Positions 2,010-63,780 of a stretch of DNA of 64,000 nt are shown in pieces. The stretch covers positions 124,001-188,000 of the forward strand of contig KV918777.1 in NCBI GenBank assembly GCA_002049455.2, given 5' to 3'. A program made the translations under genes and the position numbers. The first letter of the stretch is position 1; each line of letters starts with the position of its first letter. The notes beneath the pieces were generated by a model that was not told the origin of the DNA, did not search any database, and saw nothing but the letters and a program-made list of their open reading frames with translations. Source of the DNA: Porphyra umbilicalis (Eukaryota; Rhodophyta; Bangiophyceae; Bangiales; Bangiaceae).

Positions 2010-2659
2010 TGTAGTACCACAATCTAGGGGGTTACCTCAGAAGGAGGGAAGCAACGGCCGTCTCAGCCGCTCGCGCGACACCCGCTATGGGACTCGAGGT
2101 CCGGGAAGTCGGGCCGATCGAAACGCCAAGACATCGAGACACGGTTTACTTGCCGGCGACGCCGGTGCCTCCCACCGTCGTCGCCCTTCGTCCTAAAAGG
2201 GCGGAAACCGTCGCCCGGGCCCAATTTCCCCAAATGGGAATTGACCCGGGCCGTCACCAACCAATGCAGATAATTCCCTCCATGCATGTCAAGTCCCCCG
2301 AGGCGATCATTACAGACGAGGGGGAGAAACCGTCCCGCGCGCAACGCGCTGCACCCGCCGCGTGGCGCCCGGTCGGCCGTCGCCTGCCGCGCCCTCTCGG
2401 GCGCGCCAGCGCCCGCTCGGGCGCGCCAACCCGGCCTCCCGCGGGGCCCGCGTGCCGGGCGCGGCGGATCGGGTGCACTCCCTCAAGTGGCCCGAGCCGG
2501 GCAGCGGGGCCGCCCCCTCGCCCCTCCATCCCGCGTCGCCAACCCGTCGGCCGCCACCGCCGCTGGCGTCGCCCCCACGCGTCGGGGACCGACGTCCCCC
2601 GCCGTCGCCGTCGTCCCTGCGGTGGCCCCCTGGCGCCTAGGGGGCCCCGTAGTACTACA
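2010..2659 (-). repeat. Element 1 3' LTR
   Basis: This 650-bp LTR runs on the plus strand from TGTAGTACCACAATC to CGTAGTACTACA. It matches 13451-14099. It contains the conserved LTR stem-loop, with one mismatch relative to the 5' LTR copy. Confidence 0.95.
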
Positions 2660-2667: not shown

Positions 2668-4351
2668 GGCTGAGATGGAGCCGTCCCCGGCGACGCCTCC
2701 CGATAGACCCGTCGGGGCTCCGTCCTCCGCGCCCTTGGCGTGCCCGCCCCCGGTGGCCGCCGCCCCGGGGCCGGCGCCGGCGGCCGTCGCGCCGCCCGCG
2801 TCGGGACCGCCCGGGCGCCGCCCGACCGTCCCCGCCCGCCCGCCGGTGCCGCCGGGTATGCGGCTCCCGTACGACCCGAACGGCAGGGAGTGGCGGAAGC
2901 CGCCCCGCCCAGTGGGCGCCGCCGCCGCGACCAGCGCCGGGGCCGGGTCCGCGGCTTCCCCGGCGGCCGCCCCCGGCGGGGGTCCCGCGGTCGTGCCGGA
3001 GGAGCGACCGCCGTTGTTGGGGCAGTCGGCCCCCGAGTTCCCGCCGCACCCGGCGCCGCCCGACGTCCGAGCGTGGCTTGCCCCGCTGGGGCCGGCCGTG
3101 GCCTCGGCCGACTGGCCGCTCGTCAATGACGTCTTCCTCCCGGCTCATCCCCACGACGCCGGCGAGGCCGCTGCCGTGTGGCGGGCCTTCAAGGAGTTCG
3201 CCAAGGTGGCGGGGTACGGCACCCGGCCGGCGGCCGAGCGCGACTTCGCTTCCTTCGTCCGCTCCGTCGGGGACAGCGCGGCGTGGCTACGCTGCATGTT
3301 GCGTTGCAACCCGGGTCGGGTGCTCTTGGTCCCGCATCCCGCGGCCGAGCTCCCGTTAGTCGCCGGCGAGGAGGAGTACGCCTACCTCGAGGATTGGCAC
3401 TCCCGCCTTCGCCACCGCCCTGCGGTCCCGTTCGGTCACTCCTTGGCGCTCGCCAACTTCGGGGGCGTGGGCCCCCTGATCGCCTTGGCGTCGGTGGGCC
3501 CCGCGACCGCCCCGGCGGACTTGGCGTTGGAGGCCGCGCGCCGCGCGCGCGGCGAGCTCGTAAGCGCCCGACGGGCGGGGCACGGGGCCATCTTCCTGTC
3601 CGTCCGCTCCGGCATCGCCTTGACGCCGGCGCGTGCTCCCTTGCCGCCGGCAATGGCCACGCGGTGCGCAACGCCGCGGCTGCTGACGTACGAGTACCCG
3701 CCCGTCGTGCACCAGCAGCAGTCGCTGCTTCAGGCGTTCCCGTGCCACCCTATCCAGGGCACGGCCTACGTCATGCTGACGGCCGCCATCGTGTCGGGGT
3801 TGCTGCGTGCATACCGCGAGACGCACCGCGTCTTCGAGCCGTCGCCGTGCTACTACGACTTGACGCGGAAGTTCAAGGTCGACGACCTCGCGCCGGGCGA
3901 CAGCGGTGCCGCCGACGCCTTTGAGGAGTACGATGCCATCGTGAGGGCTGTGCCCTGGGCGGCAGTCCATGACCTGCTGCCCTACCACCACGACACCACT
4001 CGTCAAGCCCCCAGCACCCTGCTGCCCCACCAAGTGGGTACTGTGGCGGACGGCCGGTGCCACTACGTTCGCGACGTGAACGTCTTGCGGACGCCGCAGA
4101 CCCCGTTGGGGGTCATGCTCGCGGAGCCGCGGCTCGCGGACGTCGCCCCGCGGGCGTTGCCCGTGACGACGGAGCCTTGGGCGATACCGGCCGGCTTCAC
4201 TTCGCCCGATCCGGACGGCGTCCCGCCGTCGACGGAGGAGGCGGCCGCGTCGGCCGCGTACCGCGCGCGGAAGCGGCGCCACGCCGACATGGCGCGCGGC
4301 GGCCCGGCTCCGCCTGCACCCCACCACCCGGGGCCCTGGGACCCCGAGGGG

Positions 4352-4769
4352 TGTTGGACTGTGATGCTCGTCGCCGACTCCACTGGCGGTTCGCGGTTGG
4401 ACGATGGTCTGTGACCCTTATGGTACCCCACATGGTACATTTGCAAGACGTGGTCAAGTTGAACACATTTGTGTTGGGTCATCTTGGGGCGTTACTTTTG
4501 GCATGTTTTGGATTTGATCTTCGCTTTGCTCTAGTGGCTTTTGATTTGGTGAGTGATTCGATTTGGTGCGAGGGCGTGGGCGTCGGTGTGGGCGCGAGAG
4601 GGGGGAGCACTTGGGCCGGTGCGGACTATTTTAGAGGTGCTCTCGGTTGGGAGAGGCGGGCGATCCTGAGGACAACCAACAAAGCACGTTCGCACACACA
4701 CACACAAGCTCAAGCCACTCAACCACTTCACCGTGGTCCCCCAACCCCTATCCCCACTGCGTTACAACA
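4352..4769. repeat. Solo LTR (family B) inside the element 1 antisense gene
   Basis: This 418-bp TG...CA unit is flanked by a perfect 5-bp duplication, agggg, at 4347-4351 and 4770-4774. On the minus strand it begins TGTTGTAACGCAGTGG. A second copy in the other orientation lies at 57558-63780 (417 bp once its copia insertion is removed). It contains a CA microsatellite (4691-4707). No internal region is present, so it is a solo LTR left by recombination of a full element. Confidence 0.9.
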
Positions 4770-5342
4770 AGGGGGAGGAGGAGGAGGTCAGCGCCGGCGA
4801 CCCCGGGGGTCCCGACGCCTACTCCCGCGGCTTCTCCTCGTCGACCCGTGTCGGCAACGCCGAGTGGGGCCCGCGAGAGGCGGGCCGCGAGGACCGAGCC
4901 GGCACGGCTCATGGCGAGCGCTGGGACGCGACGTGGCGCGGCGACCGCGCCGACACTGCCGGTGACCGGCCCGGGCGCGGGTGGGCGTCCGAGTCGGGCG
5001 GCGGCGCCGCTGCCCCCCGTCGCAACCACGACGACCGCTGGGGGGACGGCGGCCACGGCCGCCGTGCCGACGTGCGGGACGACCGCCTGTGGTCGGCGGC
5101 CGGTCCGGGTGACGGCCGCGGCTGTATGGCCGACGGCCGTGACGAGCCCGCGTGGCCCTCCGACGGCGGCCAGGGCCGCGACGGCGCCGCTAGCGGCTGG
5201 GGCTACGGGCGGTCCGAGTACCGCCCCGCCGGCGAAGCCGCGGCGCCCGCCGGTCCGCGCCCCGCGCGTTGGGATGCCGCCTCCGCCAACGACGGCCCCG
5301 CCATGGCGCCGATGGAGCTCGGGGTTGCCGGTCCCATCATGA

Positions 5343-5428
5343 TGTTGGGATTCGAAAATTGTACCACTCAGCTACAGCCACAATACTGGTGTGAATGGTC
5401 CTGAGGAATTCAAACTTATAGTCCAACA
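5343..5428. repeat. 86-bp TG...CA insertion (very short solo LTR or TRIM remnant)
   Basis: The block begins TGTTGGGATTCG and ends TTATAGTCCAACA, with inverted ends. It is absent from the matching place in element 3 (near 35547). The flanks catga (5338-5342) and cgtga (5429-5433) look like a 5-bp duplication with one change. It is AT-richer than its host and shifts the frame of the antisense gene by one base. Confidence 0.7.
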
Positions 5429-5774
5429 CGTGACCCCCGTTCCGGGGCAACCGGACGTCGCTTACGATTGGTGGCTGTCCGCGTCGTGGACGCCCCCTAC
5501 CCCGGTGACGGCTACGGAGTGGCGGGACTCGCTGACGTCCGGGCAGGTTGTCGCCTTGTTCGGGTACGACCCGTCCATCAACTGGTCCGAGGTGGGGCCG
5601 TGCGAGATCACCGCCGCGATGGTCGAGTACGCCCGCATCGGGCTCGCCGCCGACGTCCCCCCCTGCCTGGAGCCCCCGCGGACGCGGGCGAAGCGGTTCC
5701 ACGCCGCCCTGCGGCGCGTCCTACGCAAGGCGGGTCGCCCCGTTCACGTATGGGAGCTTCGTCGTCGCGACTGA

Positions 5775-5985: not shown

Positions 5986-8900
5986 TCAGGCACGGATGTC
6001 CGGGGGCGGCGCGGCGGCGCCGCCCGAGGCGGCGCCGCCGTCGGGAGCCGAGGCTTGCGGGGCCGCCGGCGGCGGGTCGGCGGACGTGTGGGGCAGCCCC
6101 AGGCGCGCGGCGCGGCGCAGGTAGACGCGCAGCGTCTCGTGCGGGGCGTCCGCGGCGTCCATCCAGGTTGGCTGTGGGTATCCGGTCCAGTAGACCTGGA
6201 CCCGGAGGGTGCCGTCGGGCAGCGTCGCGTGGTCCGCGATGCGGTCCACGGCATACCGCTGGCCGTCGGCCTCCGCCCCGTGGAAGGAGCGCGCCGCCCG
6301 CAACGCGGGGTGTTGGGCAGGGGATTCGGCGGCCGTGCCCGAGGCGCGGACGACGTGCGCCACGTTCTCCCGTCGGTGCTCCCCGTCCACGTCCAGGAGG
6401 ACCGTCGGGCCGTCCGTGGAAACCACGCGATACGGTCCGCGGGCGACGTGCGTCAGTTTGCCGCCGGCGCCCTCCTCCTTGGCGTGGTCACGCAGCCACG
6501 CGCAGCCCCCCACGGCGAGCTTCTCCGCGCGCAGCGCGAGGCGCTTGTCGTGGTCGCGCTTGTAGCGCCCCTGCGTGGCCTTTAGCGTTGCCCGCATCTG
6601 CGGGATGAGCTGAACGAGGCGGGTCAGCAGGGAGGCTTGGGCGCGCTTCTCGGCGGCGGTGCCGCGTTGCGCCGTGATGGGGTACGCCCCGGACTTCGGG
6701 ATGTTCTTGAAAGCCCAGCTGGATACCCCCATGGGGTTGACCAGTTCCAGCGGGGCAACCCCGGTGCTACGGTGGGGGCGGCTGTTGTACGCCCGCGTCA
6801 GGGCCCCAAGGAGTTGGTCCCAGGACCGCGGATGCTCCGCCACGTAGTGGTTTAGGATTGTATGCATCGTGCGGTTGAACCGCTCCGTCTGCCCGTTCGT
6901 CTGCGGGTGTGACGGTGACGTCACCTTAGGCTCGATGGAGAGCAGGTTGCAAACCTGGCCCCAGAAGTGGCTGGTGAACTGGGGTCCCCCGTCCGAGAGC
7001 AGTCGGTCCGGCGGACCATAAGCGCCCACCCAGTAGTCCAGGACGGCCGAGGCGCAGTCCACCGCCGACGTACCGTCCATCGGGATGGCGCGCACCAGCT
7101 TGGTGAACCGATCGGTGATCACCAGGATGAATCGATGGCCTGCGGCCGTTCGGTCGAGGGGCCCGTAGAGGTCCACAGCAATGTCCTGGAAGGGCATGGT
7201 GGCGGGGAACAGGGTCAGGGGCGAGCGCCGTGCCAGCGGGCGCACGCGCTGCCGGGCACAGCTGTCGCATATCCTAACATAGGAGACGACGTCGGCCGCC
7301 ATCCCCACCCAGTAGTAGTACCGCCGCATCGCCGCATACATGCGGGATTCCCCGGGGTGCCCGGCGAGGGTCGCGTTGTGCTCCAGGTGGAGGACCTGCT
7401 CCTGCAAGGAGGTCGGGACCACCACCTGGTGGGCGCCATCGGGCGCCGCGCGTCGCCGGAGGACCCCATCGGGATCCTCGAAGAAAGGGATGCGCCGCCC
7501 GTCATTCAGGGCTTTGACGATCTCCTTGCAGTACCCGTCGTCGGCTTGGGCCGAGAGCACCGCGTCGCGGTTGATGCCACGGACCGCTGGGCCGCCAACG
7601 TAGTTGGCGGCGTCGAGCCCCCGGACCGTGTTGGCTCGCACAGCGAAGACAGGGACCGCGTCATCGAACGCGGTCTCATCGCTGGCCCCGGACTCCAGGC
7701 GAGAGATGCTGTCGGCCATGTAGTGTGTCATCCCCGGCTTGTAGGCGACGTCGAACTCCAACTCGCTGAGGCGAAGGCGCCAGCGCGCCAAGCGGGGATT
7801 CCTCGAACCCTCAATGTTGAGGATCCACCGTAGGCAGTCGTGGTCCGTGCGCACGAGGAAACGATCACCCTCGAGGTAGGGGCGGAGCTTGAGCGACGCC
7901 CAGACGACTGCCAGGCACTCATTCTCCGTGACCCCGTAGGGGAGCTCGTTCGTTGCCAGCCGCCGGCTGATGTACGCGACCGGCTTGAGTTTCCCGTCGT
8001 CTTGCTCTTGCAGCAGGGCGGCGCCCACCTGCGTCCCGCAGGCATCTACGTCGAGGACGTACTTCCGCCCGCGCCGCGGGAGTGCGAGGACCGGCGGTGT
8101 CGTGAGGGCCTCCTTGAGCCGGTCGAACGCCTGCTGCTGCAATGGCGTGGCAGGGGGCACCAGGACGGGGGCCGTGGACCCCATGAGGTCCGTCAATGGC
8201 GCTGCCATCCTTGCGAAGTTCGGCACGAACCGGCGGAAGACGTTGCACATCCCCACGAAGCTTCGCACTTGCGTGCGGGTCGTTGGGAAGTGCGCCTCGC
8301 GCAAGGCGCGCGTGTGCGCGTCCATCACACCGAGCCGGCCCGGCTTGATTTCATGCCCGAGGTACTCCACGGTCTTCCGAAAGAACCGGCACTTGGGCAG
8401 GCGGAGTGTCACTCCCGCGTCGCGAAGCAGGCGCAGAACGCGGTCGACGTGGCCGACGTGCTCCTCCCCCGTCTTGGAGTACACGATGACATCGTCGAGG
8501 TAGATAAGGCAGCTTTGCCACTTCACTCCGGAGAGGATGATGTCCAGCGCCCGCTGGAACGTGGCCGGGGCGTTCGTTAGGCCGAACGGCATCCGTTTGT
8601 ACTGGTACGCGCCTTCGTGGCACACGAAAGCCGTCTTCTCCCGATCTTCGGGTGCGATGGCAACCTGCCAGTAGCCGGCGTTGCAATCCAACGTCGAGAA
8701 GATGGTCGCCTCACCGAGGCTGTCGATGCATTCGTCCATCCGGGGCAGGGGGTACGAATCCTTCTTGGTGACGACGTTCAGCAGTCGATAATCGACGCAG
8801 AAGCGGAGGGTGCCATCCTTTTTGGGGACGAGCACGACCGGGAAGCCCCACTCCGACGACGTCGGTTCGATGACGTCCGCCTCCAGCTGCCGCTTGACCT

Positions 8901-10535
8901 AGGCCGTCTCGGCCTCCCGCGCCGTGTGCCCCGCACGGCACGGTGCGAAGCGGACGGGCCGGGCGCCGGCGTTGAGGTCGATGCGGTGCTGGGTGGCTTT
9001 GATGACGCCGAGCGCCTGGCCCGTCCACATCGCCTTGAGCTGGTCCAGCATGCGGCGGATCCGGGTGTGCAGCGTCGGGTCGACGTCCGGCAGGTCCACG
9101 TCCTCCACTTGCGGGGGGGACGCGGGTGGCGCCGCGTTCGCCAGGGCACATTCTTCGCCCGGGTCCCGGGGTCGCGCGGGGGTCGCAGCCGCACCGCCTG
9201 AGGCCGTCGCTGGGTCCGGGCTCCGCCCCGGCGCGGGGTCGACTCCGGTGCTTGACACCGCCGCCACGACGCCTTCGGCGGCTGTGGCCGGCGGAAAGGC
9301 CGGGGCGGCCGGTGTACCGGGAGGTGCCCCGGGGGGCACCTGTACGACCCCTGTCGTCAGCAGCTCGACGTAGCCGACGTTGGCCTTCTGCCGGAGGATG
9401 ACCTCGCGCGCGCCAAAGTTGGTCACGATGACCGGGAAAGATAGCCCCGGCACGATATCGTGTACGCCGTTGGCGATGGTGACCCCATGCGTTGTGAAGA
9501 GGCGCGAGGCGCCGAACACCTGACCCAGGCCGCCCCACATGGTCCGCACCCAGACGACCGTGGCCGCCGACGGCGGAAGCCGCGTCTTGTGCGTCGCACG
9601 GAGGACGCAGGAGACGCCCATCGAGCGGTCGCCATCGTCCAACGGTCCCCGTAGGATCGCCGTGACGGACCCGTCCGTCCAACGGATGGACCTATCCTGA
9701 GGCAGGATGGCGTGGGCGTTGTCGTCGATGAACGTGCAGCCCAAGATGACCGGGACCGACAGGTCGTCGACGACGAGGAAGATGACCGGGACGATCCGTG
9801 CGCCCGTCTGGAGCCACAGCGTGACGGTCCCGCTAGTGCGTAACCGTGCGTTGTTGGCGTCTCGCAGACGTACCTGTTCCTCTTCCTTAGAGGTGACCAC
9901 CTGGCGGAGCCATTCAGGGGCGAGGGCGTCCCGGCGGACCAAGTTGGGGCCCGCCCCCGTGTCGACGACGACGCGGAACGCGCGGAGGGACAGCTTGTCC
10001 AGCCCCAGAGAGGCCACGATGCGGTAGTTATGCAGGCTGAAGAGCAGCACTTCCCCGTTCCGGGGCGGGGTACCCGGCGCGTGCGTGATGTCCGCGACGG
10101 CGGCGGCGTGCCGGACGAAGCGGGTACGTTCGCGCCGGGCGCGTCCCCCGAGGCGCCGCCGGGGCCCTGGCCCGGTGCGCGCCCCGTTGGCGGGTAGGTC
10201 CGCTGGGATACCATCCCCGCCACCCCACGGCCGGGGGTCGGAGTGGCCCAGGGCCAGTACCGACGCGGCGACCGGCGGAGACGAAGGGACGGCCTCAGCG
10301 GCCACCGGCGTCGCCGGGACGGGGCAGTGGTCCGGCTCGTCCGCCGTCGCGTGGCTGACCCCCCCGGGCCGCGCGAGGATGCGGGGGCAGAAGGCGGGCG
10401 CCGGCGGGAATCCCGCAGCGGCCCGCCGCTTGCGTACCTGGCGCAGGCGGGTCGCCGTGATGTAGCAGTGCCGGTGTGCCTTGAGACGGACGACGTCCGT
10501 GGGCAGCTCACTAAGGGGGCTGCCCCTTACTCGTT
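5986..10535 (-). pseudogene. pol: Element 1 pol polyprotein (PR-RT-RH-IN-chromodomain), one in-frame TAG
   Basis: Pol is read in the -1 frame relative to gag, from the frameshift site near 10533. Domains in order are: retropepsin (VVVDTGAGPN, near 9955), reverse transcriptase (FCVDYRLLN; catalytic YLDD at 8491-8502), RNase H (VLDVDACGT, near 8050; RTDHDCLRWI, near 7840), integrase with an HHCC zinc-binding region (LEHNATLAGHPGE; CDSCA) and the core (DIAVDLYGP; LSDGGPQF; GQTERFNRTM), and a C-terminal chromodomain (YAVDRIADH; YWTGYPQPTW). A TAG at 8899-8901 stands where element 2 has a Glu codon, just before the reverse transcriptase. It is otherwise full length (about 1515 codons) with no frameshift. 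The stop codon at 5986-5988 is TGA. Confidence 0.93.
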
Positions 10536-10539
10536 TCCC
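10501..10539 (-). promoter_or_regulatory. Programmed -1 frameshift signal, gag-pol of element 1
   Basis: On the minus strand the gag frame contains G GGA AAC (plus-strand 10533-10539), an X XXY YYZ heptamer. A 7-nt spacer holds the gag stop (TAA, 10527-10529), and a stem-loop follows with arms GGGCAGC and GCTGCCC (10519-10525 and 10501-10507). Pol lies in the -1 frame. Element 2 has the same arrangement. Confidence 0.8.
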
Positions 10540-13301
10540 TTGGCGTGGCAGGTGTGGCCGTTCCCATGACTCGCGCCGTCGGCGCCCGCGATCCACTCCT
10601 CGGAGGAGCTCTCCCCCTCGTCGCTCGCTACGTCCGGGTACGCCCGGTCATCCGTTTCCACGGCGTGGACGAAGGCGGCCGTGCCCGGCGGGACGGTCCC
10701 ATGGTTGGCGCCGGTCGGCGGTACCGGTGGAACCGGCGGTCCCGTGCCCAGGGGCAGGGGTGCCGGCGGAGCCGGTCCCCGCCCGTTACGGTGTGCCGCG
10801 ACTGCTTCGCGCAGCGCGCGCCCGTGGGCCCGCACCTCGGGGGACTGGGCGGGGCACTCCCACACCCAGTGCCCCAGGTGGCCACAGAACGAGCACGCCC
10901 CCCGCCGACGTGGCGGGGGCCCCGCCTCGGGTGCCCCACTCCATCCGCCGCCACGCGGTGGAGGCGCCCCGCCTCGGGGAAACCGCGGGGGGCGATCCGA
11001 GTGCGGGAAGACGGTTCCCGGCCGTGGAGGCACCGGGGTGCCCGGCGCCAGGGTACCGCGCCCACGCCCCGCCCCCGTATGCACGGGGTACAACTCTGGG
11101 CGCCCGCCCCACGCGGGCTGCTGTTGCCAGCCCGACGCGTGCGGGAGGCTGTCCACCGGTAGTACCGGGACGTCGCCCGAGGATCCATACTCAACGGGCG
11201 TCCCCGACGCGGCCAACACCGCGGACCACTCGGCCCGCTCCGCCTCGATCCCGTAGTCCGTGACGGACAGAGCAGCCGCGGCCGAGGCGGCTCCCACCGG
11301 GAGAGCGACGGATGCTGCCGGCCGGGCCCGACGGGCCTCCCGTTCTTCGCCGCCGACCGACCGGGAGGCGCTCCCCTTGGGCTTGGCTTGGAGCTTGACC
11401 CCCCGGGCCTCCCGGGTAGCTGCTCCCGTCTTGGCAAGGAACTTGCGCAGCTTGGGGAAGGTCCGGCCCTGGGTATTGAAGCTCCACCCCAGGGCCCGGA
11501 CTTCCCGTCCAACGCCCTTGAGTAGGATACTCTTCAGCTCGGCCTCTTGTAGGACCGAGCCCAAGGCACGGTTAGCATCGAGGATGCGGTTCGCAAACTC
11601 GTGTTCGTCTTCCGACTTCTCTTGGGATGCTTGCATGAGGGCCTAGAGGTGGTTCACCAGGTCGTCCCCGTCGAGGTACTCGTTGAGTAGGGCGTGGACC
11701 GCGCGCTTGTACGTGAGCTGCCGCGAGGCGTGGGTGTCCTTGGCGCGCTGGAGCACGCCGAGCACCTCGCTCGTGACGAAGTACTGCAGCAGTGTCACTG
11801 CCGTACCCTCGTTCAGCCCGCTGCCGTCGCATGCCGTCTGAAAGTTCCCAAGGAACGCCACCAACCCCAACGGGGTATCGCCCGCAAACTGCCGCGAGGT
11901 GTGCATCAAGGCCTTGACGTCCGCGCGGATACCGCGGATGGAATTGCCTCGCGGGAGGTGTAGGCGGCCCCCTCGCTGTGCGAGTCGGTACCGTTCCGGC
12001 GACAGGAGGCCCTTGAAGCGGGGGTCGACCACCGTGTCCTCCCGCTGTTCCCGCCGGAAGGCGCGCAGCGCCTCTTGAACCAGGGCCCGGTGTGGCCGCT
12101 TGTCGGCAGCCCGTGCCCGCCGTCGGCGGCGCGTTGCTCCGGGGTCACTGCCGGTGGCGGAGGAAGAGGTCGAGCCGTCGCTGCTGTCCGTCGACTCCGC
12201 CCGACTGGCGGCGGATGACGAGCTTGACGGACTGTCGTCGCTCTCGGTCGACGAGGGGGGCCCCGACGAGGGGGGCGACGGCGCCCGTCGGGCGTGGCGC
12301 CGCCGTCGGTGGCCCTTCGAGGGGGCGGCCTTCAGGTGTCGGCGCTCGGCGCCCCGCCGGGACCGAGACCGCGCAGGGCGCGCGCCCGACGATGCAGTCA
12401 CCGTCAAGGCGGCCCCGGTCCGGGTTGTGCCCCCCGTCCGGGTACGCTCCCTGGACGTGCCTGACCCGGGTTCCGGGGGTGCCGGTCCCCCCGCGCTCGC
12501 GGTTCCGGGGGAAGGGCCCTGGGCCGCCGCCAAGGCCAGGGCCACGGCCGCGCCCCGCCCCGGGACCGGGGTCCCGTCCGATGCCGCGGTCGACGCTTCC
12601 TCCGCGGCGTCGCGGAACATCTGAGCCAAGTGGCGCAGGTGCCCGGGGTCGGCCACCGACCGAGGTGGTCCTGGGGCCGCGGCTCCGCCGATCCCCTGCA
12701 GGCTGGGCCCCGACCCGCCCGTCGCCGACGGCGCGTCCAGGGACCAGTGGTCCCGGGTGGTCCTCTGCCACCGGGCCCGGGCCACCTCCTCCGGGGTGAC
12801 CCCGAACGCCCGCTGTAATTCCCGGCGCTGCCGGTCGTCCTCCTCGAGCGGCAGCGCGTCCATTGGTCGACGCGGCTCCCGGCTCGCGGGGGTCCCGCCA
12901 ACTAAAGTTCCCGAGGAACCGCCCACCGCGTCCACTCGGGGAGGGCCAAAGGGCGGCGCCCCATCCAGGCGCTGCCCGTCCAGGGGGGAAGGGTGAACCC
13001 CCGCACCCCCTGCCTGGGGCCCCATCAGCGTGGACGTCCGTCCCGCGCCGGGAGGAGGACGAGCCCCGGTGGTCGGCGTGCGGCCGGGGTCCTCGGGCGG
13101 GGAGTTCGACTCACCCGCCACCGTACCGCCGCCGCCAACCGGGACCGCCCTTCCACCCCCCACGGGGGCCACGGCGCCCAAGGCCGGTGTTGCCCCGGGG
13201 TCTCCCGCCGGTGGCGCGTCCGTCACCCGGCTGGTGCCAGGCATCTCAAACGGAGGAGCGCCCCCGTCAAGCGGGGACGGTGAGGAAGATCCGCCAGCCA
13301 T
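10527..13301 (-). pseudogene. gag: Element 1 gag, one in-frame TAG
   Basis: This encodes the structural Gag protein that forms the particle and binds element RNA. The start chosen is the ATG at 13301 (MAGGSSSPSPLDGG); an upstream in-frame ATG at 13361 is possible. The first part is Pro/Ser/Arg-rich and probably disordered. A capsid-like helical part follows (QREDTVVDPRFKGLLSPERY, near 12030; LLQYFVTSEVLGVLQRA, near 11780), then a CCHC zinc knuckle (CSFCGHLGHWVWEC, near 10890) and an acidic tail. A TAG at 11643-11645 interrupts the capsid part (about 553 codons before it, 371 after); both halves stay in one frame and align to the unbroken gag of element 2. The gene ends at the TAA inside the frameshift signal. 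Confidence 0.88.
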
Positions 13302-13429
13302 GGAAGCGGGGCCCGCGTATCGATCGGATGTCCTCCTGTCACCGCACCGCAATACAACCAACGAGGGTCCCCCGATTCTTGGTACCGAAAGAGGTGTCGA
13401 TCCGCGACGCGCACAGTGTGCGTACCGCG

Positions 13430-13448
13430 GGTCTCACCCGGAGCGCCA
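13430..13448 (-). other. Element 1 primer-binding site
   Basis: Two bases inside the 5' LTR the minus strand reads TGGCGCTCCGGGTGAGACC, starting with the TGG that pairs with a tRNA 3' CCA. The same 19 bases occur at 43051-43069 in element 2. I did not identify the tRNA. Confidence 0.85.
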
Positions 13449-13450: not shown

Positions 13451-14099
13451 TGTAGTACCACAATCTAGGGGGTTACCTCAGAAGGAGGGAAGTAACGGCC
13501 GTCTCAGCCGCTCGCGCGACACCCGCTATGGGACTCGAGGTCCGGGAAGTCGGGCCGATCGAAACGCCAAGACATCGAGACACGGTTTACTTGCCGGCGA
13601 CGACGGTGCCTCCCACCGTCGTCGCCCTTCGTCCTAAAAGGGCGGAAACCGTCGCCCGGGCCCAATTTCCCCAAGTGGGAATTGACCCGGGCCGTCACCA
13701 ACCAATGCAGATAATTCCCTCCATGCATGTCAAGTCCCCCGAGGCGATCATTACAGACGAGGGGGAGAAACCGTCCCGCGCGCAACGCGCTGCACCCGCC
13801 GCGTGGCGCCCGGTCGGCCGTCGCCTGCCGCGCCCTCTCGGGCGCGCCAGCGCTTGCTCGGGCGCGCCAACCCGGCCTCCCGCGGGGCCCGCGTGCCGGC
13901 GCGGCGGATCGGGTGCGCTCCCTCAAGTGGCCCGAGCCGGGCAGCGGGGCCGCCCCCTCGCCCCGCCATCCCGCGTCGCCAACCCGTCGGCCACCACCGC
14001 CGCTGGCGTCGCCCCCACGCGTCGGGGACCGACGTCCCCCGCCGTCGCCGTCGTCCCCGCGGTGGCCCCCTGACGCCTAGGGGGCCCCGTAGTACTACA
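13451..14099 (-). repeat. Element 1 5' LTR
   Basis: This 649-bp LTR is the partner of 2010-2659. It holds a perfect 13-bp stem with a 5-nt loop (13596-13626) that is also present in element 2. The 5-bp duplication gatag follows at 14100-14104. Confidence 0.95.
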
Positions 14100-17830: not shown

Positions 17831-17892
17831 GATCAGCTGACCTACGCATTTCGTCGTCGGCGGTGTGCTTCCGTGTTGGTGGAGATTCTCCT

Positions 17893-33238: not shown

Positions 33239-35940
33239 ATGGAGCCATTCCCGGCGACCACCCCTATTGGCAGCTCAGTATGTCGCCCGCCACGGCACCG
33301 GAGCGCCAGGACGCCTCCGTCGCCTCGTCGGGTACTGGGTCGGTTACCGTCATGCCGGCAACGCCGGGGCCGGCAGGGCATCTTCCGGCCGTACCCGCCC
33401 GCCCGGCGGAGCCGCCGGGCATGCGGTTGCCGTACGACCCGAACGGCCGGGAGTGGCGGAAGCCGCCCCGCCCAGCGGGCCTCGTTGCCGCGGCGAGGGT
33501 CGGGGGCGGGGACGCCGCACCTCCTGGGCCCGTACCTGGCTCGGACCTCGCTTCGTCTTTGATCGGAAGCCCCGCTGTCGTGCCGGTGGAAAGTCGCCTA
33601 ATGCTGGGGCAGGACGCCCTGGCGCTCCCGCCACGTCCTGTGGCGCCCGCTGTCCGGGAGTGGCTCGCCCTGCTGGGGGCAGCAGTGGCCACGGCCCACT
33701 AGACGCTCTACAGAGACTTCTTTCGCCCTGCCCATACTCACGCTGCTGGCGAGGCGTTAGCCGTGTGGCGGTCCTTTCGGGAGATCCCCAAGGCGGCGGT
33801 GTACGGCGCCCAGCCGGCGGCCGAGCGCGACCTCGCGTCCTTCGTCCACTCCGTCGGTGATAGCGTGAGGTGATTGCGCTGCATGTTGCGGGGAAACCTG
33901 GAGCGGGTGCTCTTGGTTCCGCACCCCTCGGCCGAGCTGCCGTTCGTCGCCGGCGACGAGAAGTACGCCTACCACAATGTTCGGCACTCTCGCATTCGTC
34001 GTCGCGCCGCGGTCCTATTCGGCCCCTCCTCGTCCCTCGTGGAATTCGGGGGTGTGGGCCCCCTGATCACCCTGGCCCCGGCGGGCCAGGCGACGGCCGC
34101 GGCGGACTTGGCGTTGAAGGCCGCGCGGCGCGCCCGCGGAGAGCTTGAGAGCGCCCGCCGGGCGGGGCGAGGGTCCTTCTTCGTGCCCGTCTGTTCCGAC
34201 ATTGCCTTGACGCCGGCGCGTGCTCCCTTGCCGCTGGCGGTTATCACGCGGTGCGCGACGCCGTGGCTGCTATGAAAACCCGCCCGTGGTGCACCAGCAG
34301 CACTCCCTGCTCCAGGCATCTCCTTTCCACCCCATCCAGGACACGGCCAATGTCATGATGACAACCGCCGTTGTGTCGGAGCTGCTGCGTGCTTACCGCG
34401 AGATGCATCGCTTCTTCGATCCATCGCCGTGCTACTACGCCCTGACGGAGAAGGTCTCGGTCGACGACCTCGCGCTGGGCGACCGCGCCGTCGCCCACGC
34501 CTCGGAGGAGTACGACGTTATCGCGAAGGCAGTGACCTGGGCGGCCGTCCACAACCGGCTGCCGTACCACCACGAACCCACCCGCCAAGCCCCGATCACT
34601 CTGCTTTCCAACTAAAAGGGTACTATGACTGCCGGTGCCTTTGAGTCCGTGTTGTGAGCGGCCGCGGTCGTGGCGAGCCCCGCTGGGGGTGAAGCTGGCG
34701 GAGCCGCAGCTCGCTATCGTCGCCCCGCGGATGTTGCCCATAACGACGGAGCCCTTGGCGATGCCGGCCGGTTTCCAATCGTCCGACCCGGATGCTGTTC
34801 CGCCGTCGGCGGAGAAGGCGGCCGCGTCGGCCCCTTACCGCGCGCGAAAGCGTCGTCACGCCAAGATGGCGCGCAGCGGTCCGTCCCGGTCTGAGCTCCA
34901 CGCTTCTGGGTCACAGACCGTCGCATCTCCGGTCTGCGGCCGGCGTGGTCGCCGTTTCCGCGTCGGGGTCGCCCGCCGGTGACCCGGAGTCCCATGAGCC
35001 CAAAGGGGACGAGAAGGAGGCAAGTGTCGGGGACCCCTGGGGTCCTGCCGTCAGCCTCTGTGGCTCCACCACGTCGACCCTTGCCGATAACGCCGAGTGT
35101 GGCCCCCGCACGCCACCTCGCGAGAAGGGGGCCTGCGTGGCTCGCGACAGGCGCTGGGACACGTCGTGGCGCGACGACCACTTCGGCGCTGCCGGCGACG
35201 GGTCCGGTGGCAGCTGGGCGCCCGAGTCACGCAGCGTGGCCGCTCCCTACCGCCCCGACCACTACGATCGCAGGGGGGCTGGGTACAGACGCCACGCCGA
35301 CGTACGGGGTGACCACGCCTGGTCGGCCGCCGTTCCGGGCGACGGTGGTGTGTATGCGGCCGCCGGCCATGGTGGACCAGCTTAGTCTTTTGCCGGTGCC
35401 CAGGCCCGCAATGGCGGTGCCAGCGGCGAGCTCTCTTGGCGTTCGGAGCACCGACCCGCCGATTCGTGGCCCGCGCGCGGAGCTGCCGGTACCGCCAGCG
35501 ACGGTAGCGCCATGGCGCCGATGGAGCTGAGGGTCGCCGGCCCTGTCGCGACCCCCGTCCCAGGGAAGCCGAACGTTGCCTGCAATAGGTGATTGTCCGC
35601 TTCGTGCACGTTTTCCACCCTGGTGACGGCCTCGGAGTGGCGGCACTCCCTCACGTAGGAACAGGTCGTCGCCCTGTTCGGGTACGACTCGTGTATCATT
35701 TTGACCGTGGTGGGTCCCTGTGAGGTCACCACCGCCCTGGTCGAGTACGCCCGCATCGGGCTCGCCGGCTTCGTCCCGCCGTGCGTCGAGTCCCCGCGCA
35801 CGCAGGCGAAGCGGTTCCACGCCGCTCTGCGGCGCGTCCTGCGTCAAACGAGCCGCCCCGTTCACGTGTCGGAGTACCGCAGCCTCGACTCAGGGCTTCG
35901 CCCTGACCCCATAGGCGCCGCGCTCGTTCCGACTTTGTGA
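33239..35940 (+). pseudogene. Antisense accessory gene remnant, element 3
   Basis: This is homologous to 2675-5774 and lacks both insertions found there. It keeps the ATG near the LTR (33239), the PPGMRLPYDPNGREWRKPP motif (near 33415), RRAGRGSFFVPV (near 34160), VTWAAVHNRLPYHH (near 34530) and the C-terminal EYARIGLAGFVPPCVESP (near 35740). GYDPSINW has decayed to GYDSCIIL. Several frameshifts and stops (for example TAG near 33701 and TGA near 33871) break it. It proves the gene's position and length in a second element. Confidence 0.8.
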
Positions 35941-42460: not shown

Positions 42461-43048
42461 TGTAGCACCACCGGGATGGGGGTGGTGCTGGGAACCCCCG
42501 GCGGGGGCCGGGCGGGCGTGGCCTGCGCGTGGCAAGCAGCGGGGCGGGCGGCACGGCCGCCACGCCCCCGCGGGTGGCGCCCCGGCGCCGACTGGGCAGC
42601 TGTCGGGGGCGCGGGCACCCGGGCCACGCACGAACGGCCACCAGGGCGTCGCTGGGCGGGGCGGTTATGTGGCGCGCGCGCGCCGCCGCGTGGCCACGCC
42701 AGAGGCCGCCACGTCAGGCGGTGGCGCCCGGTCCCGATTCCCCCTCGTCTCTACTTCTCGCATTGGGGGACTTGTCTTGCATTGTACTTAGTGATATTGG
42801 TTGGTCGGCGGCGCGGGCCAATTCCCATTAGGGGAATTGGGCCCCCGCAACGGTTTCCGCCCTTATTAGGACGAAGGGCGACGACGGTGGGAGGCACCGT
42901 CGTCGCCGGCAAGTAAACCGTGCCTTTTGTCTTGTACCTTTGGCGGCCCCTCTCCCCGGATCGGGTGATCCTATAGGGGGCACGTTCTTGGGACGGCAGC
43001 GGTGGGATACTTCCCTCTTCGGGCCCGTGGCTACGGGGTTGTGCTACA
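42461..43048 (+). repeat. Element 2 5' LTR
   Basis: This 588-bp LTR runs from TGTAGCACCACCGGG to GTTGTGCTACA. A perfect stem-loop lies at 42877-42907 (13-bp arms, loop ggagg), and a second inverted repeat, CCAATTCCC and GGGAATTGG, near 42818-42840. Open frames within the LTR are not genes. Confidence 0.96.
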
Positions 43049-43050
43049 TT

Positions 43051-43069
43051 TGGCGCTCCGGGTGAGACC
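43051..43069 (+). other. Element 2 primer-binding site
   Basis: TGGCGCTCCGGGTGAGACC lies two bases after the LTR and is identical to the site of element 1. Confidence 0.88.
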
Positions 43070-43169
43070 ATTGGTCCACGCCCGGTCGCACGACCCCCGG
43101 CCCCGATCTCGAGGTTGTACCGGTTCGTTGGAGGATCACCTCACGGTACGCGTCGCGGCCCCCGGGGCC

Positions 43170-45587
43170 ATGGACCGCGTCGCTTCCTCTTCTTCTTCCT
43201 CTTCTGTCGCCGGGGGCGCTCCCCGGGCGGTCGTGAGCGACGGCGACGTCGGCGCGGCCACCGGGGCCCGGATGGACGGACGGGGCGGGCTGCCCTCCTT
43301 GCCAGACCTCATCGCCCTGGGGCGAGGGGGCCCGGCGGCGTCCACGGCGGGCGGTGGTTCGGTGGCGACGGTGCACGGCACGTCGCCCTTTGACCCCGAC
43401 CACTCGCATCCCGCGGCGACCGACCGAGCCGTCGCTTCAGATCAGGGGCTGACGGGGATGGCATCCCAACGGGGCCCGGGGGGGCCCGCGAACACCCCCC
43501 GGGACCTGGCGCGTCGGAGCGGCGTTTTCGCCCCGCCGCGGCGGCGGGACGCAGATGCGATCCGTCCCCCCCCGTCGTCTGCCGCGCGCCGACGGGCGGA
43601 CGCAGATGCGACGGAGCTGGATACGACGGAGGTGGAGGAGACGTTCTCCGCGTGGGCGGCGGCGCGCACTGAGCGCCGTCGCGAGGCCTCGCCGCCAACG
43701 GACGGCAGCGCAGCCCAGATGGGGACCCGACCGGGACGCCGTGGGCGCTCCGTGCGCGGGTCGCGGCGATCGGGCGGACGCCGCCCCGAGACGGTCGCCG
43801 ACACGACCGAGTCGCAGCTGCTCATGACCGAGATGCGACAGGAGCTTGGGGAGCTCCGCCGCCTGCGGGACCAGATCGTCGAGACGGCCTCCTCGGCAGC
43901 TGTGCCCGACGCGCCGCCCGGGCCGACTCGCTCGGCCCCGCGGGCGGGGCCGAGCGCGTCAACCCGGTCGGCGGCGCCCGCGCCCGGCTGGGCCACGTCC
44001 CCGGCGGGCGGCGTCCATGCGGGGGCCCAGTCTTCCGACAGTGGGGCGGATTCGGAAGAGACGGCCGCGCCGGCGGCGTCGATGGCGGAATTCCGCGAGT
44101 CTATCGTGGGCGAGGCGGTCCGGCGCCTGCGGCGCGACCAGCGGTTGGAGCGGGTCACGGACCCCAGGTTTGTGCCCCTGTTCAAGACGGACTCATACCG
44201 CCTGTACGACCGCACGCCCGGGTTCTCGCGCACGCAGCGGGCGCAACAGCGGTATAACCGGCGGGACCTCAAGGAAATGATGCTCGCGGAGGACCGGCGT
44301 TGGGACGCCAAGGATCGCGTGAGCGTCGTCAACTTCCTGCGGAAGCTCAAGAACTCCTGCGACGCCCTCGGCGTGGCCGAAGGGGCCGCGGTGTACCTGC
44401 TTCAGTGGCTGGTCTCCGAGCCCGTCATGGTGGTCATCCGCCGCGTGGTGCCGATGGGCAGCGACACGGCGGCGGTGGCCGCGCAGCCCAAGTTCAAGCA
44501 CATCATCCGTGAACTGCTGGAGGAGTACCTCGACGAGGACGTCCTCTCCGACCGCCTCCGCGAGCTGCAGTACGCCAAGCAGCACGCGTGGGAGACCGAG
44601 GGGCAGTTCGGGGACCGCATCGTGGCGTTGAACGCCGCCCTCGGGGCCCTCTTGGACGGCAAGGAGCTCAAGGCGGTGCTGGTGCAAGGGGTCTCCGAGT
44701 CCCTTCGGGCCGCCGCACGGCAGTACAACACGGCTGGGCGGTCGTTCACAAAATTGAAGGCCTACCTCGATCGGGAAGGGAAGTCTTCCCGGGCCCTGCA
44801 CAAGGTGAAGTTGGCACCAAAGCCACCGGCACGGAACCGGCCGTCGTTGACCCCGCGGAGCAAGGCACCCGCGTCCAAGGCCCTCGGGGGCGCCTCCCAG
44901 GCCGATGGCGACGTGGCCACGGTCGATGCGACCGCCACACATTGGGATTGGCAGGCGGCACAGGCCGCCCTGGCCGCACCCGAGGGAGAGAGCTCCGTGG
45001 CCTTCGTCGCCGGCACCGGAAGCCCAGCCTCGTCGGGTTGGGGCCCGACCCAGGCTCCCCGAGCGGGGTACCGCCGCAGGACGGAGTTCGCGTCACCATT
45101 GACGCGGGGGCCAGGTCCCGCCGCTTCCGGCGCCGCCGTGTCCCGGCTAGGCGCAGCAGTCCCCTTCCCGGGACGCCCCCACGTGGCGTATAGCCATGCC
45201 GGGCGGGACCCCGCTCACCCGCGCGGGTACCCCGCTGGTGGCCCTACGCGCCGTCGGGGGGCTTGCGTCGTGTGCTACGACCAGGGGCACTGGGCGGAGC
45301 AGTGCCCCATAATGACCCCGGAGCATCACGAGCGGGCGCGTAACGCGCGGGAAGCGGTCCGGCGGGCGCGGTCGCCGGGGGCTGCCGGCGCAGCCGCCCT
45401 GACTGCGCAGGCGGCCGCCACGGGGGTGCACGTCATCCACGAGGTGGAACGCAACCCGGGGGCCTACGAGACCGACGACGGGACGACGACGGAGGAGGAA
45501 AGGCGTCAGTTGACCCAAGACGGGTCGGAAGGTGAAGCCGACGAGGCGGCGGATGCCGCCGATGACGAGGCCCAGGGAAATGCCTAA
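43170..45587 (+). CDS. gag: Element 2 gag
   Basis: Gag polyprotein of 805 aa from the ATG at 43170 (MDRVASSSSSSSVAGG). The frame is open upstream through the primer-binding site without an ATG before the LTR, so this start is natural. The first 300 residues are disordered, with Ser/Ala/Arg-rich sequence. The capsid-like helical part runs from about residue 305 (MAEFRESIVGEAVRRLRRDQ; DPRFVPLFKTDSYRLYDRT; FLRKLKNSCDALGVAEGAAV). The CCHC knuckle CVVCYDQGHWAEQC is at about residue 699, and the tail is acidic (GTTTEEERRQLTQDGSEGE). No stop interrupts it, unlike the element 1 copy. It ends with TAA inside the frameshift signal; ribosomes that slip make Gag-Pol. Confidence 0.92.
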   Translation: MDRVASSSSSSSVAGGAPRAVVSDGDVGAATGARMDGRGGLPSLPDLIALGRGGPAASTAGGGSVATVHGTSPFDPDHSHPAATDRAVASDQGLTGMASQRGPGGPANTPRDLARRSGVFAPPRRRDADAIRPPPSSAARRRADADATELDTTEVEETFSAWAAARTERRREASPPTDGSAAQMGTRPGRRGRSVRGSRRSGGRRPETVADTTESQLLMTEMRQELGELRRLRDQIVETASSAAVPDAPPGPTRSAPRAGPSASTRSAAPAPGWATSPAGGVHAGAQSSDSGADSEETAAPAASMAEFRESIVGEAVRRLRRDQRLERVTDPRFVPLFKTDSYRLYDRTPGFSRTQRAQQRYNRRDLKEMMLAEDRRWDAKDRVSVVNFLRKLKNSCDALGVAEGAAVYLLQWLVSEPVMVVIRRVVPMGSDTAAVAAQPKFKHIIRELLEEYLDEDVLSDRLRELQYAKQHAWETEGQFGDRIVALNAALGALLDGKELKAVLVQGVSESLRAAARQYNTAGRSFTKLKAYLDREGKSSRALHKVKLAPKPPARNRPSLTPRSKAPASKALGGASQADGDVATVDATATHWDWQAAQAALAAPEGESSVAFVAGTGSPASSGWGPTQAPRAGYRRRTEFASPLTRGPGPAASGAAVSRLGAAVPFPGRPHVAYSHAGRDPAHPRGYPAGGPTRRRGACVVCYDQGHWAEQCPIMTPEHHERARNAREAVRRARSPGAAGAAALTAQAAATGVHVIHEVERNPGAYETDDGTTTEEERRQLTQDGSEGEADEAADAADDEAQGNA

Positions 45588-45613
45588 GGGGCAGCCTCTT
45601 ACGTGGGCTGCCC
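45575..45613 (+). promoter_or_regulatory. Programmed -1 frameshift signal, gag-pol of element 2
   Basis: Slippery G GGA AAT (45575-45581) is in the gag frame. A 7-nt spacer containing the gag TAA (45585-45587) follows, then a stem with arms GGGCAGCC (45589-45596) and GGCTGCCC (45606-45613). Pol is open in the -1 frame from this point. It is conserved with element 1. Confidence 0.82.
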
Positions 45614-48600
45614 ACCGATGCCGTTCGCCTCAAACCCGCGCGCCGACCGGCCTACATCACGGCGGCCAGGCAGCGCGCCCTTTGGCGTTGTGGACGGGGC
45701 GTCCGGCCATTGCCGGCCTTTCGGCCCCGCATCCTGCCCCGCCCGACCGGTCCCGCAGCGGACAGTGACGCTGCGACCGTCGGCGTCGAGGGGCCAGCCC
45801 CAGTCACCGCGCCACCCGCCAAGCCGGCACCCGCGACCGACGACGCCGAGATCCTGCTCGGGACGCTGCACAACTACAAGATCACGGCATCCCTGGGACG
45901 CCGGGCGTCCAACATGATCGCGACCTCCGTGGTCGTCGACACCGGAGCAGGCGCCAGCGTCATCCGACCGGAGGTCCTCCCCGACGGATGGGACGCGGCA
46001 ATCACGCCGCACCCGCCCGGCGCCGGGCTCCGGCTGCGCGACGCAAACGGGAATCAGCTAGTGACCTCGGGAACGATTTCCCTGCTTTTCCGGGCGGGAG
46101 GTCTGTGCGTGCCCTGCACCTTCCATGTGGTCGCCAGCCTCTCCGTCCCCGTCCTGCTGGGATGCGACTTCCTGGACGCGCAGGCCCATGCCATCCTGCC
46201 GTCGGACCAAGCGGTGCGGCGGCGGGATGGGACGGCGTCCGCGATCGTTCGGGGTCCCAATGACAAGATTGACCGCCGTGCCACGGCGTCCCGCGTCCTG
46301 CGGCTCGCATACAAGACGCAGTTGGCGCCACGGTCGGCGACGATCGCTTGGGTGCGCACCCCGTGGGGTGGCCTAGGGCAGGTCTTCGGGGCATCCCGGT
46401 TGATGACCATGTACCGGGCGACGGTCGCCAACGGGGTCCACGAGATTCTGCCCGACATCGCCTTCCCGGTCGTGATCTCGAACTTCGGGGACTGCGAGGT
46501 AACCCTCCGCCCAAAGACGGCCATTGGCCGAGTCGAGGTGCTCACGACCGGCGTCATCGCCTTGCCCGCGCGCCCGTCGGCCGACGGGGGAGGTTCGGTG
46601 CGGGTCGACGTGCCGGCGCGCGACCCATCCTTCTGTGCCCCCCGCCCGGCCGACGCGGGGGCCGCGGCAGAACTTGCCCCGACGGCAGCCGTGGACGGGG
46701 CCCTGCTGGTGGCGGAACCCCCCACAGGACAGGGCCGCCTTGAGGGGGACTCCCCCGAGGAGGCGCCCGAGCCTCCGGCACCGAACCCTCCGCGCGTGGC
46801 GGATGTCCCGCTGCCCGAGGCCCCGCCGCACCTCCACGAGCGGATCCGGGCGGTGCTCCGCCGGCACGAGGCGATGTGGTCAGGCCAAGCCCTGCGCGCG
46901 ATCAAGGCCACGAGGCATCACATCGAGCTCACCCCGGGGGCCAAGCCCGTTCGCGTCCCGCCCCGGCGGGCCGGGCCCAAGGCGCGAGAGGCGGAGGCGG
47001 CGGAAGTTGAACGCCAACTGGCGGCCGACGTGATCGAGCCGACGTCCTCCGAGTGGGGCTTCCCCGTGGTCCTGGTCCCTAAGAAGGATGGGACACTCCG
47101 GTTCTGCGTGGACTACCGCTTGCTGAATGCGGTATCCAAGCGCGCCTCCTACCCGCTGCCGCGCATGGATGAGTGCATCGACAGCCTCGGGGAGGCCAAA
47201 GTCTTCTCCACCCTGGACTGCAACGCCGGGTACTGGAAAGTCCTGATCGCCGATGGCGACCGGGAGAAGACGGCCTTCGTCTGCCACAAGGGGGCCTACC
47301 ACTACAAGCGGATGCCTTTCGGGCTGACGAACGCGCCCGCGACATTCCAGTGGGCGTTAGACATCATCCTGTCCGGCTTCAAGTGGCAAAGCTGCCTGGT
47401 ATACCTCGACGACGTCATCGTCTACTCCAAAACACAGGAGGCGCATGTCCAGCACTTGGACGAGGTCCTGGGGCTCCTACGGGCCGCGGGGGTCACCCTC
47501 AAGCTGCCCAAGTGCCGCTTCTTCCGGACGACGGTGGAGTACCTCGGCCACGAGATCACTCCCGGCCGCCTCGGCGTGTTGCAGGCCCACACCAAGGCCC
47601 TCCGGGAGGCGGCGTTCCCAACGACGCGCACTCAGGTGCGGAGCTTCATCGGCATGTGCAATGTCTTCCGACGGTTCGTCCCGAACTTCGCGCGGATCGC
47701 CACCCCCCTGACGGACCTCATGGGCTCGACCGCCCCGGTCACGGTGCCGCCACCGACGCCGGAGCAGCTGGTCGCCTTCGAGGAGCTGAAGCGCCGGCTG
47801 ACGCAGCCTCCTGTTCTCGCCCTCCCACGCGCCGGTCACAAGTATGTGTTGGACGTAGACGCGTGCGGGACGCAAGTAGGCGCAGCCCTGCTACAGGAGC
47901 AGCAGGAAGGCGGGCTCCGCCCCGTCGCCTACATCAGCCGCGTCCTCGAAGGCGCAGAACGCCACTTCGGTGTAACCGAGAAGGAGTGCCTCGCCGTCGT
48001 GTGGGCCTCCCTCAAGTTGAGAGCCTACCTGGAGGGCGACCGGTTCTTGGTCCGGACGGACCACGACTGCCTCAGGTGGCTCCTCAACATCGACGGGACG
48101 GCGCACGGGCGCCTCGCTCGCTGGCGCATGCGCCTTAATGAGCTCGCCTTCGACATCGCGTACAAGCCCGGCCAAACCCATTGGCTCGCCGACGGGATGT
48201 CCCGGCTGGTCACGTCGGGCACCGACCACTCGGCTGACGACACGGACCTCCCCGTCTTCGCCGTGACCCGGGCAGAGACAGCCCGGGGCCTGGAGACCGC
48301 CAACTACGTATCCGGGCCGACCACGCGCGCCATTGATAAGGGCGAGGTGGCCACGGCACAAGGGGAGGATCCCCTGTGTCGTAAGGTCGTGGAGGCGCTT
48401 AACGCTGGTCGGGCCGTGCCGTTCTTCGAGGACAGTGATGGCCTCGTGTGCTGGCGTGCCACCCACGACGGGGTGGCCCAGATTGTCGTACCGGTGCCCC
48501 TGCGGGAGCGTGTTCTGCGGTTGGAACATGAGACCACGTTGGCGGGACACCCGGGGGAGTCCCGAATGTATGCGGCCATGCGGCGGTATTTCTACTGGCC

Positions 48601-51830: not shown

Positions 51831-51832
51831 CG

Positions 51833-51940
51833 GGCCCCGCCAACGGTCCCACGGCCCCGCGGGCGTAACCGGATTTATTCCCGCAGTGGCGGGCCCCGCC
51901 GGCGGTCACACGGCCCCGCGGGCCCAACCGGATTTATTCC
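51833..51940 (-). terminator. Duplicated poly(A)-signal region of the element 2 antisense gene
   Basis: Two copies of a roughly 50-bp segment (about 51833-51881 and 51892-51940) each contain tttatt on the plus strand, which is AATAAA on the minus strand (51874-51879 and 51933-51938). The second begins only a few bases after the antisense gene's stop. Confidence 0.65.
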
Positions 51941-63633: not shown

Positions 63634-63780
63634 AGCGTATCGCCCCTAGATGACCCAACACGAATGTGTGGAACTTGACCACGTCTTGCAAATGTACTAT
63701 GTGGCGTACCATAGGGGTCACCGACCATCATCCATCCGCGAACCGCCAGTGGAGTCGACGACGACCATCACAGTCCATCA

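What the first reader, a model, noticed from the sequence alone, without database searches (positions are those of the whole stretch)
2675..5774. Convergent antisense gene is a real, conserved component of these Ty3/gypsy elements
Seen: deleting the two dated insertions (423 and 91 bp) from element 1 restores one open frame of exactly 862 codons (stop included) opposite to gag-pol. A homologous, decayed copy sits at the same place in element 3 (33239-35940), and a divergent one in element 2 (51941-55819). Shared short motifs, in order, are RAGHGA, ATPRLL/AAPRLL, a RxFxPxP...LTR segment, VPW..V...LPY, then GYDPxxNWxxV at the C-terminus. Conservation of motifs between families that differ in LTR sequence argues for selection. 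Known: some plant Tat/Ogre elements carry antisense ORFs. Inference: this is an independent accessory protein, perhaps RNA-binding because of its Gly/Arg-rich middle.
Basis: partly seen in the sequence, partly recalled or inferred. Interest (0 to 1): 0.88.

Follow-up and report, generated by a model that had tools for sequence, protein, structure and literature searches.

The report
Antisense gene in algal Ty3 retrotransposons
One group of jumping genes in this alga-like genome carries an extra protein-coding gene on the opposite strand, kept by natural selection and apparently read from the element's own terminal repeat, but its protein resembles nothing described in the libraries searched and its job is still unknown.

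Summary
Opposite to gag-pol, between pol and the 3' LTR of element 1 (window 2675-5774), lies a real protein gene. Two repeated insertions interrupt it here (418 bp and about 86-88 bp). Nine of 40 E1-like loci read carry it uninterrupted at 856-861 aa. A divergent homologue sits in element 2 and a decayed one in element 3. Strand and frame are shown by substitution patterns: the N/S ratio is about half the neutral expectation in this frame only, apart from a stop-riddled mirror frame. The gene goes with one Ty3 clade: 65 of 81 RT rows have it downstream and antisense within 10 kb, against 0 of 63 other Ty3 RT rows of the same capped list. It diverges about as fast as Gag (30% against 34-35%; pol 70%). 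The start codon lies 15 nt (E1) or 37 nt (E2) from the LTR, so transcription probably starts inside the LTR. No Pfam, NCBIfam or PDB relative was found; structure models are mostly weak. Antisense genes at this place are known in plants (Grande, Retand) and one is reported for REM1, but this protein is not of those types by the tests made. 'RNA-binding' is unproven.

The parts
2675..4351 (+). E1 antisense gene, first part: Pro-rich N-terminus and conserved core (core about 3035-4297)
   Evidence: 98% to the uninterrupted natural ORF of L010; open frame
4352..4769 (.). 418-bp repeated LTR-like insertion with a 5-bp target duplication, interrupting the gene
   Evidence: absent from L010 and P0002
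4770..5342 (+). E1 antisense gene, second part: Gly/Ala/Arg/Asp-rich low-complexity middle
5343..5430 (.). second, small repeated insertion (about 86-88 bp plus imperfect short duplication)
   Evidence: the same 86-bp unit in L064
5431..5774 (+). E1 antisense gene, third part: C-terminal helical domain with GYDPSINWSEV and a basic tail; stop at 5772-5774
2010..2659 (.). E1 3' LTR (gag-pol is on the minus strand); inferred to hold the antisense promoter
   Evidence: 98.3% to 13451-14099; ends 15 nt before the ATG
13451..14099 (.). E1 5' LTR; 5-bp target duplication outside both LTRs
10527..13433 (-). E1 gag region (two open pieces, zinc-knuckle-like motif in the second)
   Evidence: weak zinc-knuckle match below cut-off
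5986..10647 (-). E1 protease-RT-RNaseH-INT region (two open pieces), ending 211 nt from the antisense stop (convergent)
   Evidence: RT, RNase H, INT by Pfam; protease region by similarity to E2 pol
51941..55819 (-).
43002..49948 (+). E2 gag (43002-45587) and pol (45710-49948), convergent to the antisense gene
42461..43049 (.). E2 5' LTR
   Evidence: 99.7% to 55857-56445
55857..56445 (.). E2 3' LTR
33274..35889 (+). E3 decayed antisense gene (pieces 33274-34272, 34271-34636, 34665-34910, 35548-35889)
   Evidence: 60-68% protein identity to E1, stops and frameshifts

Best explanation
An accessory protein gene of one Ty3/gypsy clade, placed tail-to-tail with gag-pol between pol and the 3' LTR. 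Shown: it is protein-coding on this strand and frame, under purifying selection, and tied to this clade. Inferred: its mRNA starts inside the 3' LTR, used as an antisense promoter, because the ATG lies only 15-37 nt from the LTR edge. Inferred, less sure: the protein (Pro-rich tail, helical core, low-complexity Gly-rich linker, small helical C-terminal domain with a basic end) acts on the element's own RNA, particle or nuclear phase, as a regulatory accessory protein like those proposed for Grande GENE23 and retroviral antisense proteins. Coding and selection: about 0.97. LTR-driven antisense transcript: about 0.75. Nuclear or RNP regulatory role: about 0.45; the confidence field is for the whole statement.
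For: 128 matches to a 200-aa core piece in the own genome, E1-like (57-100%) and E2-like (29-39%). Uninterrupted ORFs of 861 aa in seven loci, 860 in L029 and 856 in L027, of 40 E1-like loci (20 best matches including the window copy, 20 picked further down the list). Context-preserving null: N/S ratio 0.44-0.59 of expectation in 8 of 8 E1-family pairs tested (0-2 of 300 replicates as low) and 0.38-0.70 in 28 of 28 E2-family pairs (0 of 100 each); pairs share sequences and are not independent. Frame test in 3 pairs: frame +0 at 0.50-0.55 with 0 of 200 replicates as low; the only other low frame is the third-position mirror, which holds 12-22 stops. By region (four pairs, all against L029): N-terminus 1.05, core 0.44, middle 0.62, C-terminus 0.56. 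Clade link: 65 of 81 RT rows against 0 of 63. ATG next to the LTR in both families. Four consecutive K/R residues at the end of the core in 22 of the 29 proteins (of 54 fetched) where the region could be read.
Against: No RNA or protein data were at hand. In 66 raw pairwise comparisons, six pairs of very young copies have dN/dS of 1.49-2.62 (five or fewer synonymous changes each), as expected for decay after insertion but no sign of constraint. The N-terminal 120 residues look neutral. The basic stretch is missing from E2 relatives L056, L057 and L058, and L051, L052 and L066 have basic runs only elsewhere, so nuclear targeting is not a shared feature by this sign. Fourteen of 81 RT rows have no antisense partner downstream within 16 kb, and 2-3 have a match downstream on the same strand. 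Structure models are weak (mean pLDDT 50 and 44).
Confidence: 0.5

Rival explanations
1. A structural or particle protein: a second, Gag-like or Env-like component co-packaged with Gag, made from the antisense mRNA.
For: It diverges between E1 and E2 like Gag (30% against 34-35%), far more than pol (70%); large, Pro-rich, with a low-complexity linker.
Against: No profile similarity to the elements' Gag (hhalign probability 0.1%, only two gag rows). Membrane segments were not tested. Fast divergence also fits any interaction-driven protein.
Confidence: 0.2
2. A counter-defence protein that blocks host silencing of the element.
For: Accessory, clade-bound, fast-diverging; convergent transcription would itself make double-stranded RNA, a reason to carry such a protein (inference).
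Against: No match to any relevant Pfam family, so no known suppressor domain was seen. No direct test.
Confidence: 0.15
3. No protein function: the antisense RNA is what matters and the ORF is a by-product of GC-rich sequence.
For: Long chance ORFs abound in this GC-rich stretch.
Against: Frame-specific constraint, constraint confined to some domains, and 30% protein identity over 312 aa between families.
Confidence: 0.03
4. A captured host gene carried by transduction.
For: Such capture is discussed for LTR elements (passages of PMC7264820).
Against: Present in two divergent families and at 65 of 81 RT rows of the clade. Matches lying away from elements were not sorted out one by one, so a host relative is not excluded.
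Confidence: 0.1

Closest known systems
Antisense aORFs of plant Grande, RIRE2, Retand and PvRetro13 (aORF-3R), in Retand mostly with TRP28 (PF04195)
   Same: Gypsy elements; ORF between pol and 3' LTR, antisense to gag-pol, kept in most copies; tandem repeats can lie in the same region (passages of PMC7264820 and PMC11963269)
   Different: No TRP28 match in any of 53 members scanned; the host is a photosynthetic eukaryote with an alga-like genome (species not identified); gene23 of Grande is reported to be driven by a promoter in its upstream region (passage), whereas here the ATG abuts the LTR
REM1 of Chlamydomonas reinhardtii (reverse-frame ORF)
   Same: Ty3/gypsy with a reverse-frame ORF, in an alga
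   Different: [quoted passage not shown] Here pol has its own integrase and the antisense protein has no chromodomain match. The REM1 paper itself was not held; its ORF3p with PHD finger is recalled.
HTLV-1 HBZ and other retroviral antisense proteins
   Same: Antisense gene read from a promoter in the 3' LTR (as cited in PMC7264820 and PMC11963269, passages)
   Different: HBZ is a bZIP protein (recalled); no bZIP match here; LTR promoter activity is only inferred here

Membership tests
Antisense accessory ORF between pol and 3' LTR (aORF-3R kind) | Position between pol and 3' LTR | tested here: met
   E1 and E2 anatomy
Antisense accessory ORF between pol and 3' LTR (aORF-3R kind) | Antisense to gag-pol and kept in most copies | tested here: met
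   65 of 81 clade RT rows with a downstream opposite-strand match within 10 kb; 0 of 63 other RT rows
Antisense accessory ORF between pol and 3' LTR (aORF-3R kind) | Transcribed antisense | not testable with these tools
   no RNA data
Retand-type antisense protein | TRP28 domain (PF04195) | tested here: not met
   Pfam scan of 53 members, E up to 1: no such match; only two chance families, one member each
REM1 reverse-ORF type | chromodomain or GPY/F in the antisense ORF | tested here: not met
   no Pfam match at E up to 0.1 in the E1 (2675-4413, 4670-5404) and E2 pieces and none of that kind at E up to 1 in 53 members; a very divergent chromodomain could be missed
Gag paralogue | profile similarity to Gag | tested here: inconclusive
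   hhalign probability 0.1% but only two gag rows
Env-like protein | signal peptide and transmembrane segments | not tested
   no such predictor was run
AAA+ lid-like fold of the C-terminal domain | structural match | tested here: inconclusive
   [not shown]

The most novel reading that the evidence does not exclude
A Ty3 clade of algae has a second, LTR-driven antisense transcription unit that makes a large protein of a so far undescribed family, evolving at Gag-like speed because it interacts with Gag, RNA or host defence: an antisense 'third gene' as integral to the element as gag and pol.
Probability: 0.35. Interest if true: 0.72.

Novelty: new variant of a known kind. Interest (0 to 1): 0.52.

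Why it matters
Antisense accessory ORFs in LTR retrotransposons are, in the reviews seen here, of undetermined function (passages). This case gives frame-specific evidence of selection, several uninterrupted natural copies, and two families far enough apart (30% identity) to show which domains matter. It extends the phenomenon to an alga-like genome with a protein of another type, which suggests that antisense third genes arise repeatedly. The closeness of ATG and LTR makes a clear prediction (bidirectional LTR) that RNA-seq could test.

Tried and rejected
Introns: the 423- and 91-bp inserts were first considered as introns. Rejected, because they are flanked by short duplications, are absent from natural copies, and recur elsewhere in the genome.

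Chimeric elements: C153 copies seemed to pair a 77-79% RT with a 95-99% antisense core. At DNA level the RT is 97.5-98.0% to E1, so this was an effect of frameshifts.

Wider homologues: three protein searches gave 54 proteins (P0001-P0054), all from JGI or ENA contigs without names; only the best about 8,000 candidates of each search were scored, so absence elsewhere is not shown.

Host: ten matches to the light-harvesting family point to a photosynthetic eukaryote; the species was not identified (paper search did not help).

Print: searches for this gene family or for algal antisense ORFs (only the top 5-20 papers of each list were seen) showed no description of this protein in titles or abstract starts; most subscription papers are not held. 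Of the four papers opened, only passages found by terms were seen (PMC11963269, PMC7264820, PMC2774666, PMC12477816).

Full report
What was checked. The finding says that element 1 (E1) of the window carries, opposite to gag-pol, an 862-codon gene interrupted by two insertions, with relatives in elements 2 and 3. I tested this without rejoining anything. E1 has LTRs at 2010-2659 and 13451-14099 (98.3% identical, 5-bp target duplication) and gag-pol on the minus strand, with RT, RNase H and integrase in 8898-5986. Against an uninterrupted natural copy (L010) the window gene aligns in three gap-free blocks, 2675-4351, 4770-5342 and 5431-5774, at about 98%. The spacers are a 418-bp LTR-like repeat with a 5-bp duplication and a small repeat of about 86-88 bp. 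Both recur elsewhere in the fetched sequence, so they are insertions, not introns. The sizes and the 862 codons are right.

Is it more than chance? The stretch is GC-rich (about 70-80% in most 2-kb bins of E1 and of the E2 gene) and full of long ORFs on both strands, so length proves nothing. Three tests do. First, homologues: a 200-aa core piece has 128 matches in the own 83.8-Mb genome. Of 40 E1-like loci read (L009-L048; the 20 best matches, L009 being the window copy, and 20 picked further down the list), nine keep the whole frame: 861 aa in seven, 860 in L029, 856 in L027; a tenth (L015) runs past the stop. Of 20 E2-like loci (two cut by contig ends) one, L057, keeps a frame of 1248 aa up to the C-terminal motif. 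Second, constraint: with substitutions re-placed at random in the same trinucleotide contexts, the observed nonsynonymous/synonymous ratio is 0.44-0.59 of expectation in 8 E1-family pairs and 0.38-0.70 in 28 E2-family pairs; 0-2 of 300 and 0 of 100 replicates were as low (pairs share sequences). Third, frame: in three pairs only frame +0 (0.50-0.55) and its third-position mirror on the other strand (0.55-0.58, with 12-22 stops) are low; the other four frames are at 1.05-1.64. Results against: six of 66 raw pairs, all very young, have dN/dS 1.49-2.62 on five or fewer synonymous changes, and the first 120 residues look neutral (1.05).

Who carries it. RT matches of the genome to E1 fall in two groups with a gap: 81 rows at 77% identity or more and 63 at 62% or less (144 of 145 rows used). 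Within 10 kb, 65 of the 81 have an antisense-gene match downstream on the opposite strand (67 within 16 kb) and 2 have one on the same strand; of the 63 others none has one downstream, and one has an upstream match. Fourteen of the 81 have none within 16 kb; some are partial RT matches or near a contig end, and a more divergent version was not excluded. So this looks like a clade feature, not a general property of Ty3 elements here.

Anatomy. Protein of E1 relatives (numbering of L010): Pro-rich N-terminus (1-120), conserved core (about 121-520), Gly/Ala/Arg/Asp-rich middle (521-748, net charge -5) and C-terminal domain (749-861) with the GYDPxxNWxxV motif; constraint is 1.05, 0.44, 0.62 and 0.56 in that order. 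The core and C-terminal domains are shared with E2 (30% over 312 aa, 39% over 69 aa). Between E1 and E2, pol is 70% identical, the protease region 46%, gag 34-35% and the antisense core 30%: the gene changes at about Gag's pace. The ATG lies 15 nt from the LTR edge in E1 and 37 nt in E2. Upstream in-frame reading into the LTR differs between copies (L010 and L042 against L029 and the window), so the ATG at 2675 is the likely start and the promoter is probably in the LTR; that is inference. In E2 the gap between pol and the antisense stop holds 57-bp tandem repeats, as reported for many Retand elements (passages of PMC11963269).

What it is not, or not shown to be. In 53 members scanned against Pfam at E<=1 only two chance families turned up, one member each; no NCBIfam, no PDB relative by profile, no Foldseek match. 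TRP28 (Retand type) and chromodomain (REM1 type) are not found. REM1 is described in a paper passage as having a truncated integrase in reverse frame with GPY/F module and chromodomain (PMC2774666); the original paper was not held. Gag paralogy is not supported by a thin profile comparison. The RNA-binding idea rests on composition alone.

How it most likely works. Shown: coding, selected, clade-bound, convergent. Inferred: an antisense mRNA begins in the 3' LTR and encodes an accessory protein that serves the element's own RNA, particle or nuclear phase. A run of four basic residues at the end of the core in 22 of 29 E1-like proteins fits nuclear entry, but is missing from E2 relatives L056, L057 and L058. 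I give the regulatory or RNP role about 0.45, a particle protein 0.2 and counter-defence 0.15.

Verdict. A real antisense gene and, as far as the searches reach, a new protein family, of a kind already known (antisense accessory ORF between pol and 3' LTR).

Noticed in passing
window 50150-51860: 57-bp tandem repeats (18 copies listed) between E2 pol and its antisense gene; long ORFs on both strands there may be chance, as 57 is a multiple of 3.
   Followed up: partly
window 57558-57832 and 63637-63777 (minus): Two pieces of the 418-bp LTR-like repeat that also interrupts the E1 gene, about 5.8 kb apart, at about 90% identity.
   Followed up: partly
window 14536-15762 (minus): Helitron helicase-like N-terminal domain (PF14214, E 3e-22) beside E1.
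   Followed up: no
window 58236-59959 (plus): Copia-type gag with zinc knuckle and a weak GAG-pre-integrase piece.
   Followed up: no
window 56453-57462 (minus): Integrase-region relative of E1 pol at 25-40% identity: a further Ty3 family next to E2.
   Followed up: no
window 17225-17863 and 62378-62884: A 40-bp tandem array and a 169-bp triple tandem repeat.
   Followed up: no
window 6118-6255 (minus): Near the C-terminus of E1 pol a stretch reads like a divergent chromodomain by eye (recalled pattern), but Pfam does not call it.
   Followed up: no
own genome C110:212776, C229:58331, C155:69952, C16:105613, C131:45054: C-terminal-domain matches in the expected place and strand beside RT copies for which no core match was listed: the core may be lost or too divergent there.
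   Followed up: partly
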